Shown in pieces: positions 41,361 to 48,171 of a stretch of DNA of 64,000 bases (position 1 is its first letter; each line of letters opens with the position of its first letter). The stretch is from Mugil cephalus. Its lineage: Eukaryota > Chordata > Actinopteri > Mugiliformes > Mugilidae. Made by a program: the position numbers and the translations under genes. Below the pieces are notes generated by a model. That model had not been told where the DNA came from and did not search any database. It saw only the letters and a program-made list of their open reading frames with translations. The stretch spans positions 1,070,001 through 1,134,000 of the forward strand of contig NC_061781.1 of assembly GCF_022458985.1 (NCBI RefSeq). The letters are read 5' to 3'.

Positions 41361-41373
41361 AACTCAGGGTTGT
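41361..41373. repeat. Left target-site duplication of the Penelope-like composite
   Basis: AACTCAGGGTTGT, repeated exactly at 48159-48171. Confidence 0.85.
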
Positions 41374-41643
41374 CCAAAAAAGCGTTGAATAAGGTCAGCT
41401 GGACTTGTAGAATTTCTTGAAGACGTTTCGCCACTCATCCGAGTAGCTTCTTCAGTTCTGATGAACTAGTGGGAAATTGAGGTTTAAATAGGAAAAAACT
41501 CTGTGGGTAGCACCCACCAGAAACTTGCTTGACCAGAAGACTGGGGTCACTAATTACCATAATGGCTGATACTTACCTGTCCTTGAATGGGGGGAAACTG
41601 TGTGCCTAGGCTAACTTACCCTATGAATAGAGCTCTAACGAGG

Positions 41644-43023
41644 CTATTGTCCATGGGAACCTGGAGGCTCAGTGTGTGAATGTTGTTGAAACTTCTTGGG
41701 GACAGAAGTCAAAACTGAATTATAAATAGTTGGTAAATGAAATCTCAGTCCACCTCCTCTGTTTAGAGAAGGTTTCTCCATTTTGACATAGATGGCTTCC
41801 TTAACTCCTCTCTCAAACCATCTGTCCTCTCTGGCCAGGACTTTGACGTTGTTATCCTCAAAGGAGTGTCCTTTGTCCTTCAGGTGGAGGTGGACTGCTG
41901 AGTCGTTTCCTGATGAGCTGGCTCTCCTGTGTTGGGCCATGCGCTTGTGTATGGGTTGTTTGGTTTCCCCAATGTACAGGTCTGTACATTCCTCGCTACA
42001 CTGAACCGCGTACACTACATTGCTCTGTTTCTGTCTAGGTGTTTTGTCCTTGGGGTGGACCAGTTTCTGTCTTAGGGTGTTTCCAGGTTTGAAATAAACT
42101 GGGATGCGGTGTTTACCAAAAATTCTCCTTAGTTTCTCTGATACCCCAGCTATGTAGGGGATGGTGATGTTCTTCCTTCTGTTTTGTTCCTCTTCCCTGT
42201 CCTTCCTGGGATATCTTTTTGAGCCTTTGACAAAGGCCCAGTTGGGATATCCGCATGTCTTGAGGGTTTGTTTAATGTGTGTTCCCTCCTTGTCCTTGCC
42301 ATCCTGTCTGGTGGGGACAGTCTGTGCTCGGTGCTGGAGGGTTCTGATGACTCCCAGTTTGTGTTCCAGGGGGTGGTGTGAGTCAAATAACAGGTGTTGG
42401 TCTGTGTGTGTGGGTTTCCTATATACTTCTATGTTGAGGCTTCGATCTTCTTCAACACGTACCAAACAGTCCAAAAAGGCCAGACAGGCCCCGCTGATGT
42501 CCTCCCTGGTGAACTTGATGTTGCTGTCCACTGTGTTGATGTGTTTAGTGAAAGATTCCACCTCCTTTGTCTTGATTTTAACCCAGGTGTCGTCCACATA
42601 TCTGTACCAGTGGGTGGGAGTGGGACCTGCAAAGGTGTCCAGAGCTCTGGTCTCTACTTCCTCCATGTAGAGATTGGCCACGATCGGTGACACTGGGGAC
42701 CCCATCGCACAGCCGTGTTTTTGCCTGTAGAAACCTCCATTGAACTGAAAGTAGGTGGTGGTCAGGCACAGGTCGAGTAACACACAGACTTGTTCTGGGG
42801 TGAGGTTGGTTCTTGAGGCCAAGGTGTCATCCTTTTGTAGTTTTTTCCTTACTACATCCGTGGCTTCTCTCGTGGGGATGCAGGTGAACAGAGAGGTGAC
42901 ATCAAAGGACACGATGGTTTCTTCTGGGTCCAGTGTGATGTCCTTGACTTTGTTCACAAAGTCCCTGGAGTTTTCGATGTGGTGTGGGGTGTTGCCTACT
43001 AATGGAGAGAGGATGGATGCCAA
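41644..43023 (-). pseudogene. PLE unit A: RT C-terminal half plus GIY-YIG nuclease frame
   Basis: 459 codons from MASILSPLVGNTP to the stop. Holds RT motifs A to E and the GIY-YIG domain (residues about 340-420), with HKRMAQHRRASS after the YIG box. It is separated from its N-terminal half by the frameshift and is not expected to be translated on its own. Confidence 0.85.
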
Positions 43024-43057
43024 ATGCTTGGCAATGTTATATGTGACAGAGTTGATG

Positions 43058-44143
43058 CTACTGACAATGGGTCTGAGTGGGGCTCCCTCCTTGTGTATTT
43101 TGGGGAGACCATAAATACACGGTGTGGCTTCCCCTGGGTACAGACGGTAATAAAGGAGTCTGTCGATGACCTTCTCCTTTTCCAGTTGTTGTAGGTAGTT
43201 TATTATTCTGGTTTTGTAGATGTTGGTTGGGTCGCGGTCTCAGTGTCTCATAAGTGTCTTGGTCGTTGAGGAGGTTGTTCATTTTTGCCTGGTAGTCCAC
43301 CGTGTTTAACACCACTGTGCATCTCCCTTTGTCTGCTGGCAGGATCGTGATGTCCCGGTCTTTCTGCAGTGATACTAGCGCCTTCCTTTCCTGGGGGGTG
43401 ATGTTCGATGGTGGTGTTTTTGCACTGGCGAGGGCTGATGTTATTTCCAGTCTGAGTTGTTCGGCTTCTGTGTTTGTCAGTTTGTTGTTCTTGATGGCAG
43501 ACTCTGTAGCAGTGATGAGGTCTACCACTGGAATCTGTTCTGGTGTTATGGCGAAGTTTAGTCCTTTGGCCAGGATCTCATTCTCTGGTTGCGTGAGTTC
43601 TCTGTGCGATAGGTTCTGGACCCACTTCTTCTGGATGCCCTGCTGCGTGGTGTGGGCATCCTTCTTCCTCCATGTCAGTTCTTCCGACTTGTGTTTTCTG
43701 TTGTGCCTAGTTTGCAAAACCTGGAATTTGCGTTTCTGTCGTTCCTTACCTTTTGTGTGTTGTGTGATCTGGGCCTTTTCCACAAATTTGGAGACTTTCT
43801 CCAGGATGTCCTCAGGTAGCTGCGAAGTTAGTTTGCAGAAGCAGTGTTCGGCCTCGGATTTGAGAGCGTCGATGGTGAAATTGACCTGTCTCACTCTCTC
43901 GTTGAGCAGCTGGGCTTGAGCTTTCTGGAGAATTTGTTCCGCTTTGAAGCCCTTTACGGTGGAGCCTATGTGTAGGCTGGTGGGAATAATCTTGTGTTGT
44001 CTGCATCTCAAGTTGAACCGAAGGTGGTTCCTGTAGTCTGCAAGTTTCCTCGAGGTCCTCTCATATTCCCGCACTAGTCGAAGGGTGCTGGTCCCAAAGT
44101 GCGTAGCAATATGTCTGTGAAGGTTCTCAGTCATCCAGGTCAT
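43058..44143 (-). pseudogene. PLE unit A: N-terminal frame
   Basis: 361 codons starting MTWMTENLHRHIA. The last ~65 residues are out of frame after the 1-base insertion. It supplies the 85 N-terminal residues that unit C lacks. Confidence 0.8.
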
Positions 44144-45580: not shown

Positions 45581-45595
45581 ACAGAGTGAGAGAGT
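45581..45595. other. Filler at the inversion junction between units B and C
   Basis: Fifteen bases, acagagtgagagagt, belong to neither aligned unit but repeat the gagagagtgaga word that opens unit C. This is typical of template slippage at an inverted retroelement junction. Confidence 0.6.
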
Positions 45596-48121
45596 GAGAG
45601 AGTGAGACAGGTCAATTTCACCATCGACGCTCTCAAATCCGAGGCCGAACACTGCTTCTGCAAACTAACTTCGCAGCTACCTGAGGACATCCTGGAGAAA
45701 GTCTCCAAATTTGTGGAAAAGGCCCAGATCACACAACACACAAAAGGTAAGGAACGACAGAAACGCAAATTCCAGGTTTTGCAAACTAGGCACAACAGAA
45801 AACACAAGTCGGAAGAACTGACATGGAGGAAGAAGGATGCCCACACCACGCAGCAGGGCATCCAGAAGAAGTGGGTCCAGAACCTATCGCACAGAGAACT
45901 CACGCAACCAGAGAATGAGATCCTGGCCAAAGGACTAAACTTCGCCATAACACCAGAACAGATTCCAGTGGTAGACCTCATCACTGCTACAGAGTCTGCC
46001 ATCAAGAACAACAAACTGACAAACACAGAAGCCGAACAACTCAGACTGGAAATAACATCAGCCCTCGCCAGTGCAAAAACACCACCATCGAACATCACCC
46101 CCCAGGAAAGGAAGGCGCTAGTATCACTGCAGAAAGACCGGGACATCACGATCCTGCCAGCAGACAAAGGGAGATGCACAGTGGTGTTAAACACGGTGGA
46201 CTACCAGGCAAAAATGAACAACCTCCTCAACGACCAAGACACTTATGAGACACTGAGACGCGACCCAACCAACATCTACAAAACCAGAATAATAAACTAC
46301 CTACAACAACTGGAAAAGGAGAAGGTCATCGACAGACTCCTTTATTACCGTCTGTACCCAGGGGAAGCCACACCGTGTATTTATGGTCTCCCCAAAATAC
46401 ACAAGGAGGGAGCCCCACTCAGACCCATTGTCAGTAGCATCAACTCTGTCACATATAACATTGCCAAGCATTTGGCATCCATCCTCTCTCCATTAGTAGG
46501 CAACACCCCACACCACATCGAAAACTCCAGGGACTTTGTGAACAAAGTCAAGGACATCACACTGGACCCAGAAGAAACCATCGTGTCCTTTGATGTCACC
46601 TCTCTGTTCACCTGCATCCCCACGAGAGAAGCCACGGATGTAGTAAGGAAAAAACTACAAAAGGATGACACCTTGGCCTCAAGAACCAACCTCACCCCAG
46701 AACAAGTCTGTGTGTTACTCGACCTGTGCCTGACCACCACCTACTTTCAGTTCAATGGAGGTTTCTACAGGCAAAAACACGGCTGTGCGATGGGGTCCCC
46801 AGTGTCACCGATCGTGGCCAATCTCTACATGGAGGAAGTAGAGACCAGAGCTCTGGACACCTTTGCAGGTCCCACTCCCACCCACTGGTACAGATATGTG
46901 GACGACACCTGGGTTAAAATCAAGACAAAGGAGGTGGAATCTTTCACTAAACACATCAACACAGTGGACAGCAACATCAAGTTCACCAGGGAGGACATCA
47001 GCGGGGCCTGTCTGGCCTTTTTGGACTGTTTGGTACGTGTTGAAGAAGATCGAAGCCTCAACATAGAAGTATATAGGAAACCCACACACACAGACCAACA
47101 CCTGTTATTTGACTCACACCACCCCCTGGAACACAAACTGGGAGTCATCAGAACCCTCCAGCACCGAGCACAGACTGTCCCCACCAGACAGGATGGCAAG
47201 GACAAGGAGGGAACACACATTAAACAAACCCTCAAGACATGCGGATATCCCAACTGGGCCTTTGTCAAAGGCTCAAAAAGATATCCCAGGAAGGACAGGG
47301 AAGAGGAACAAAACAGAAGGAAGAACATCACCATCCCCTACATAGCTGGGGTATCAGAGAAACTAAGGAGAATTTTTGGTAAACACCGCATCCCAGTTTA
47401 TTTCAAACCTGGAAACACCCTAAGACAGAAACTGGTCCACCCCAAGGACAAAACACCTAGACAGAAACAGAGCAATGTAGTGTACGCGGTTCAGTGTAGC
47501 GAGGAATGTACAGACCTGTACATTGGGGAAACCAAACAACCCATACACAAGCGCATGGCCCAACACAGGAGAGCCAGCTCATCAGGAAACGACTCAGCAG
47601 TCCACCTCCACCTGAAGGACAAAGGACACTCCTTTGAGGATAACAACGTCAAAGTCCTGGCCAGAGAGGACAGATGGTTTGAGAGAGGAGTTAAGGAAGC
47701 CATCTATGTCAAAATGGAGAAACCTTCTCTAAACAGAGGAGGTGGACTGAGATTTCATTTACCAACTATTTATAATTCAGTTTTGACTTCTGTCCCCAAG
47801 AAGTTTCAACAACATTCACACACTGAGCCTCCAGGTTCCCATGGACAATAGCCTCGTTAGAGCTCTATTCATAGGGTAAGTTAGCCTAGGCACACAGTTT
47901 CCCCCCATTCAAGGACAGGTAAGTATCAGCCATTATGGTAATTAGTGACCCCAGTCTTCTGGTCAAGCAAGTTTCTGGTGGGTGCTACCCACAGAGTTTT
48001 TTCCTATTTAAACCTCAATTTCCCACTAGTTCATCAGAACTGAAGAAGCTACTCGGATGAGTGGCGAAACGTCTTCAAGAAATTCTACAAGTCCAGCTGA
48101 CCTTATTCAACGCTTTTTTGG
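45596..48121 (+). mobile_element. Penelope-like element unit C (5'-truncated, open frame)
   Basis: The plus-strand unit has an unbroken 749-codon frame from RQVNFTIDALKSEAEH to PGSHGQ (45602-47851). It includes linker, RT (YVDDTWV near 46900) and GIY-YIG domain (LYIGETKQP near 47520). The first in-frame start is a GTG; the real start lies 85 residues further upstream in unit A, so it is truncated rather than complete. The 3' noncoding end 47852-48121 matches those of units A and B. Confidence 0.9.
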
Positions 48122-48158
48122 ATTACCATGACCTGGATGACTGAGAACCTTCACAGAC
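48122..48158 (+). mobile_element. Penelope-like element unit D (first 37 bases only)
   Basis: Repeats the unit start attaccATGACCTGGATGAC directly after unit C's 3' end, then stops at the target duplication. This is the same head-to-tail junction as between B and A. Confidence 0.85.
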
Positions 48159-48171
48159 AACTCAGGGTTGT
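48159..48171. repeat. Right target-site duplication of the Penelope-like composite
   Basis: AACTCAGGGTTGT, exact match to 41361-41373. Confidence 0.85.

What the first reader, a model, noticed from the sequence alone, without database searches (positions are those of the whole stretch)
41361..48171. Single-event Penelope-like composite: A(-), B(-), C(+), D(+) units between one 13-bp target duplication
Seen: units A and B are head-to-tail on the minus strand. Units C and D are head-to-tail on the plus strand. They meet at an inverted junction (45580-45596), and only the outer edges carry a target duplication (AACTCAGGGTTGT). Established: Penelope-like elements often show tandem and inverted pseudo-LTR layouts. 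Inference: all four segments arose during one integration by template jumping. The near identity of B and C argues for a recent event.
Basis: partly seen in the sequence, partly recalled or inferred. Interest (0 to 1): 0.72.

Follow-up and report, generated by a model that had tools for sequence, protein, structure and literature searches.

The report
Two-ended insertion of Penelope retrotransposon
A young jumping gene of a known family, probably in an animal genome, lies here as two copies pointing at each other inside one duplicated target site, which suggests that copying started from both cut ends of the chromosome; the layout is typical of the family, but this example shows it unusually cleanly.

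Summary
A single 13-bp target duplication (41361-41373, 48159-48171) encloses A (complete 2776-nt unit, -), B (last 1431 nt, -), a 15-nt filler, C (last 2526 nt, +) and a 37-nt stub. "D" is therefore no unit: it is the first 37 nt of the next unit and fits the known Penelope "tail". A, B and C show no substitutions; A has one extra base against C. None of 11 alternative sub-segments has a target duplication above 4 bp. The outer ends lie 48 and 85 nt past a hammerhead-like core. In the characterised Anolis element, reverse transcription starts mostly 85-92 nt past the ribozyme cut, there are two adjacent start sites bounding a 30-40 nt tail, and the enzyme cuts and extends both DNA strands. 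I read the locus as one convergent event: both target 3' ends were primed on multimeric (or circular) Penelope RNA, one at each start site, and the cDNAs joined head-to-head. "Single event" is supported; "template jumping" is not needed. The topology is known for Penelope elements, so this is a new member of a known kind. Other copies, an empty site and reads were not tested: the genome search did not complete.

The parts
41361..41373 (.). left copy of the 13-bp target site duplication
   Evidence: exact AACTCAGGGTTGT, two copies only in the window; flank test
41374..44149 (-). unit A: complete 2776-nt Penelope-like unit; its 3' end abuts the left target duplication without a tail; reading frame broken by one extra base
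44150..45580 (-). unit B: 3' 1431 nt (unit 1346-2776), head-to-tail with A, 5' truncated at the inverted junction
   Evidence: no difference from A or C over its length
45581..45595 (.). 15-nt filler at the head-to-head junction; with the start of C it forms AGAGTGAG x3.1 (45583-45607) where A has a single copy
45596..48121 (+). unit C: 2526 nt (unit 250-2776), 5' truncated, with open frame 45602-47851 (749 codons; RT and GIY-YIG-like motifs)
48122..48158 (+). 'D': 37-nt start of a next unit, read here as the Penelope 'tail' (the border with the duplication is ambiguous by 1 nt, an A)
   Evidence: compared with PMC11167929
48159..48171 (.). right copy of the 13-bp target site duplication
41422..41455 (-). 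hammerhead-like core in A
   Evidence: pattern search, 3 matches in the window, 0.01 expected
44198..44231 (-). hammerhead-like core in B
48040..48073 (+). hammerhead-like core in C; its cut side is 48 nt before the unit end and 85 nt before the tail end

Best explanation
One recent integration of a Penelope-like retroelement by two-ended (twin or dual) target-primed reverse transcription. The endonuclease made a staggered cut with 13-nt 3' overhangs. The left 3' end (top strand) was extended on element RNA from the first internal start site, giving antisense cDNA A and then, across a pre-existing unit-to-unit join, part of B. The right 3' end (bottom strand) was extended from the second start site 37 nt further on, giving the tail (D) and then C. 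The two cDNA 3' ends joined head-to-head through the GTGAG they share, with slippage leaving a 15-nt filler; gap filling at the overhangs gave the single target duplication. Shown: layout, duplication, identity, tail length, junction sequence. Inferred: priming at both ends, tandem or circular template, order of steps, mode of joining.
For: Single exact 13-bp duplication at the outer edges and at most 4 bp for 11 sub-segment hypotheses. The two outer ends sit at two points of the unit 37 nt apart, 48 and 85 nt past the hammerhead-like cut side. In the Anolis element PAc the ribozyme cut is 26 bp and the most common RT start 111-118 bp into the ORF (my subtraction: 85-92 nt), RT starts at two adjacent sites bounding the 30-40 nt tail, and the protein cuts and extends both strands (PMC11167929, parts 1 and 2 of 4; figures not seen). 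What follows C is 37 nt of the next unit, not the sequence beyond A's end, so C was not made by copying back along A; C also lacks A's extra base, though that base could be a later change. No hairpin with a stem of 6 bp or more and loop up to 7 nt at the inverted junction. The unit-to-unit join is the same in both arms.
Against: A single locus; no second copy in the window and no genome copy, empty site or read evidence was obtainable (15 genome-search requests unanswered). PAc prefers cuts at ATT in AT-rich DNA; here GATTAATATT starts right after the duplication, but the duplication itself is not AT-rich. The filler's templating is only modest: 283 of 20,000 random draws of window 15-mers did as well with blocks of 6 nt or more, 295 with 4 or more. 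Rfam gave no hammerhead match at E up to 1, and the minimum-energy fold does not show the hammerhead fold. The endonuclease domain rests on motif only.
Confidence: 0.7

Rival explanations
1. Self-priming (fold-back): one cDNA, or an antisense template, folded on itself and was copied back, giving the head-to-head inverted arms, as proposed for Adineta vaga Penelope elements.
For: Proposed in PMC3846280 from palindromes at inverted junctions (Discussion read).
Against: No 6-bp hairpin with a loop up to 7 nt at this junction; the arms break at different unit positions (1346 and 250); copying back along A would end in the left target sequence, but C continues 37 nt into a next unit; C lacks A's extra base, unless that base came later.
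Confidence: 0.1
2. Sequential events: one Penelope copy inserted first, a second inserted into or beside it in the opposite orientation, or a later inverted duplication.
For: The PAc authors allow insertion into the element's own pseudo-LTR (PMC11167929).
Against: No internal target duplication above 4 bp in 11 sub-segments; no substitutions between copies; both outer ends share one duplication.
Confidence: 0.08
3. Assembly artefact: the inner part (B/filler/C) was misjoined between identical Penelope copies.
For: Copies are identical over kilobases, so short reads could not order them; the Adineta authors report that Pen3 and Pen4 elements mostly could not be assembled whole at first because of tandem and inverted repeats (PMC3846280, passages).
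Against: The outer ends match by a 13-bp duplication and sit 37 nt apart on the unit, as a tail predicts; the junction has a specific 15-nt filler; the layout is a known Penelope layout.
Confidence: 0.1
4. Template jumping by one RT from one primed end, including a strand switch at 45580.
For: The junction shows GTGAG on both sides and a repeated 8-mer, which a jump could also leave.
Against: The head-to-tail joins are identical in both arms, so no jump is needed for them; the right end lies one tail length from the left end's start point, which a single-primer model does not predict.
Confidence: 0.12

Closest known systems
Penelope/Poseidon-clade PLE of Anolis carolinensis (PAc; PMC11167929, parts 1 and 2 of 4 read)
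   Same: Tandem units with pseudo-LTRs, hammerhead near the unit start, 30-40 nt tail bounded by two RT start sites, main start 85-92 nt after the ribozyme cut (my subtraction), cutting and extension of both strands in vitro.
   Different: In PAc the ORF starts upstream of the ribozyme cut; here the long frame's first ATG lies 54 nt after it, with a stop in frame between them. No sequence comparison was possible.
Penelope Pen2a_Av of Adineta vaga (PMC3846280, passages and Discussion)
   Same: Direct pseudo-LTRs, an adjacent inverted pseudo-LTR, a 31-bp tail, one 9-bp target duplication around everything.
   Different: There the inverted part is one pseudo-LTR of 181 bp overlapping the direct one by 15 bp; here it is 2.5 kb with a 15-nt filler and no 6-bp hairpin.
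Twin priming and 'dual priming' of primate L1 (PMC2837659, passages)
   Same: Two inverted fragments within one target duplication, made from both target 3' ends; dual priming uses two RNAs.
   Different: L1 primes first on poly(A), the second site being internal; here both ends start at defined internal sites of a multimeric element. Meyer et al. propose dual priming as speculation.

Membership tests
Penelope-like elements (EN+) | Reverse transcriptase domain | tested here: met
   PF00078 RVT_1, E 7.9e-11, residues 266-460 of the frame in C; YVDD motif
Penelope-like elements (EN+) | GIY-YIG endonuclease C-terminal to the RT | tested here: inconclusive
   Motif VVYAVQCSEECTDLYIGE at residue 626; no Pfam or NCBIfam hit up to E 10, no PDB sequence hit up to E 10; single-sequence model useless, mean pLDDT 33.3
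Penelope-like elements (EN+) | Tandem or partial-tandem units forming pseudo-LTRs, often with an inverted copy | tested here: met
Penelope-like elements (EN+) | Optional 30-40 nt tail at one end | tested here: met
   37 nt
Penelope-like elements (EN+) | Hammerhead motif in the pseudo-LTR | tested here: inconclusive
   Core pattern at the 3' end of A, B and C, 0.01 expected in the window (pattern written after seeing the sequence); no Rfam match at E up to 1
Penelope-like elements (EN+) | RT phylogeny: sister to telomerase RT | not tested
   no tree was built; no reference PLE or telomerase sequences were fetched
Twin or dual priming product | Two inverted fragments inside one target duplication | tested here: met
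Twin or dual priming product | Each target 3' end primed its own cDNA | not testable with these tools
   inferred from end positions only

The most novel reading that the evidence does not exclude
Penelope elements integrate by default through two-ended priming: both 3' overhangs of a staggered cut are extended, one from each of the two internal RT start sites, so the 'tail' on one end and the head-to-head inverted pseudo-LTR are direct traces of the two primings. This would replace self-priming as the source of Penelope inverted repeats.
Probability: 0.4. Interest if true: 0.65.

Novelty: new member of a known kind. Interest (0 to 1): 0.4.

Why it matters
[quoted passage not shown] A young copy with no substitutions records both start points and the meeting point, and turns the two-ended model into a simple genome-wide test: do the two ends of inverted copies fall on different start sites?

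Tried and rejected
Snap-back copying of A, nested or sequential insertion, and D as a unit were tested and are not favoured. Primer-RNA complementarity as a targeting rule was looked at and not claimed: left end 8 of 10 pairs (202 of 50,000 random ends do as well), right end 4 of 10. The joined flanks, searched against the rest of the window, gave only two separate flank repeats and no empty-site paralogue; the C+D element and its protein gave only chance-level matches elsewhere in the window (best E 0.14 and 0.90). A search for relatives with the protein in viral contigs found none. An 18-mer from the tail hit 1 viral contig and 17 bacterial contigs; in all 18 loci the match to the unit start was 18-20 nt long, with two further weak matches (L009, L011, E 0.12): I take these as chance. 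A 21-mer from the hammerhead region found nothing in viral contigs. The structure model of the endonuclease part was unusable, so no fold search was made.

Literature. For two-ended priming of Penelope elements: 'Penelope-like' with 'twin priming' gave 3 papers, seen as a listing, no PLE paper by title and none opened; 'Penelope' with 'dual priming' gave 0; 'Penelope-like' with 'head-to-head', 'tail' and 'reverse transcription' gave 1, a plant review, not opened; the last search gave 4, two of them (PMC11722881, PMC5933816) not opened. I found no such proposal in print, but the library lacks most subscription papers and three cited PLE papers were not held.
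Full report
What is there. The window holds a composite of a Penelope-like element between two exact copies of AACTCAGGGTTGT at 41361-41373 and 48159-48171, the only two copies in 64 kb. Reading inward from the left: A, 41374-44149, minus strand, one complete 2776-nt unit; B, 44150-45580, minus strand, the last 1431 nt of a unit; a 15-nt filler, 45581-45595; C, 45596-48121, plus strand, the last 2526 nt of a unit; and 37 nt, 48122-48158, plus strand, which are the first 37 nt of a next unit. 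No other copy of the element was found in the window.

Identity. Pairwise, B and A (1431 nt), C and A (2526 nt) and B and C (1431 nt) have no substitutions; the single difference is one extra base in A near unit position 912. A's frame is broken there, while C keeps an open frame of 749 codons, 45602-47851. With an assumed neutral rate of about 5e-9 per site per year (my assumption, no call), no substitution in about 6.5 kb of copies suggests an insertion younger than roughly 100,000 years. Gene conversion or assembly polishing could hide differences.

Single event. Treating sub-segments as insertions of their own, 11 of 11 show a flanking direct repeat of at most 4 bp, while the whole shows 13 bp; 4 of 20,000 random segment pairs in the window reach 13 bp or more, with slop of 3. 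This supports one integration.

Which element. The frame in C matches RVT_1 (E 7.9e-11) and carries YVDD and a GIY-YIG-type motif with two cysteines between its halves (the motif's reading is recalled). Pfam, NCBIfam and PDB sequence searches did not recognise the endonuclease part at E up to 10, and a single-sequence model was useless. The 3' ends of A, B and C each have a hammerhead-like core: CTGAAGA, a stem-loop of 7 bp, GAAACGTC; 3 matches in the window against 0.01 expected, with a pattern written after seeing the sequence. Rfam found nothing at E up to 1 in 41000-48600 or at gathering scores in the window, and the minimum-energy fold forms the inner stem-loop but not the hammerhead. A review notes that PLE hammerheads are minimal type I variants that usually lack helix III (PMC7761336, passages). 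I think the host is a fish; that rests on my recollection of such repeats and on no call.

How it was made. The outer ends of the two arms fall on two different points of the unit: A ends at the unit end, and the C arm ends 37 nt further into the next unit. These points are 48 and 85 nt past the cut side of the hammerhead core. In the Anolis element PAc, the ribozyme cuts 26 bp into the ORF, the most common RT start is 111-118 bp into the ORF (my subtraction: 85-92 nt past the cut), there are two adjacent start sites, the sequence between them is the 30-40 nt tail seen in genomic copies, and the enzyme cuts and extends both target strands (PMC11167929, parts 1 and 2 of 4; the text I read does not give the exact place of both sites, and figures are not held). 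The locus fits this in distance, tail length and two-strand extension. The simplest reading is that each target 3' overhang primed its own antisense cDNA, one at each start site, and that the two cDNAs met head-to-head. The same unit-to-unit join appears in both arms, so the template was most simply a tandem transcript, or a circle, not a series of jumps. If one RNA served both, it had at least three units and 1308 nt of the middle one (unit 38-1345) were lost, comparable to L1 twin priming; if two RNAs, it is what has been called dual priming for L1, there as a speculation (PMC2837659, passages). The data do not separate these.

The junction. B ends in GTGAG (plus-strand reading) and C begins with GAGAGAGTGAGACAGG; across filler and C start the 8-mer AGAGTGAG is repeated 3.1 times where A has one copy. 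This looks like microhomology joining with slippage, but the templating score of the filler is reached by 283 of 20,000 random draws of window 15-mers with blocks of 6 nt or more, and by 295 with 4 or more (draws near the junction were skipped), so it is suggestive only. No hairpin of 6 bp or more with a loop up to 7 nt lies at the junction, which counts against the self-priming model proposed for Adineta (PMC3846280, Discussion). Copying back along A is argued against by what follows C, 37 nt of next unit and not the left target. A's private extra base agrees with this, but it could also have arisen after insertion.

What is known. Penelope copies with direct pseudo-LTRs, an inverted copy, a tail and one target duplication are described, for example Pen2a_Av (PMC3846280, passages), and a curation guide lists inverted pLTRs and short 3' extensions as peculiarities of individual copies (PMC8969392, passages). 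The topology here is thus ordinary for the family; what stands out to me is the length of the inverted arm (2.5 kb against 181 bp in Pen2a_Av), the lack of any substitution and the clean record of both start points. How common long inverted arms are was not tested.

Limits. The window's own genome could not be searched, so copy number, other ends, the empty site and the assembly were not tested. All mechanism statements rest on one locus and on the published enzyme.

Noticed in passing
58692-59231 (-): An ORF matches Pfam SF3b1 (splicing factor 3B subunit 1, E 1.2e-12), probably an exon of the host SF3B1 gene.
   Followed up: no
2120-2605 (-): ORF matching Exo_endo_phos_2 (endonuclease-reverse transcriptase, E 7.6e-9), likely a LINE remnant.
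   Followed up: no
32541-32880 and 48198-48529: An 87% identical repeat of about 340 nt begins 27 nt right of the target duplication; the match does not reach across the insertion site, so it gives no empty site.
   Followed up: partly
27317-27632, 54030-54372, 63676-63999, 24188-24361 (-): A dispersed repeat family of up to about 340 nt, pairwise 75-81% alike.
   Followed up: no
41361-41373 against unit A start (44136-44149, -): The left target 3' end could pair with the RNA just past the first start site at 8 of 10 positions, one of them G-U; 202 of 50,000 random ends do as well; the right end shows 4 of 10.
   Followed up: partly
44110-44149 (-): The tail end lies on the 3' side of a small predicted stem-loop near the unit start; the folds have z-scores of only -1.2 and -1.75. 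PAc starts in an AC-rich stem loop.
   Followed up: partly
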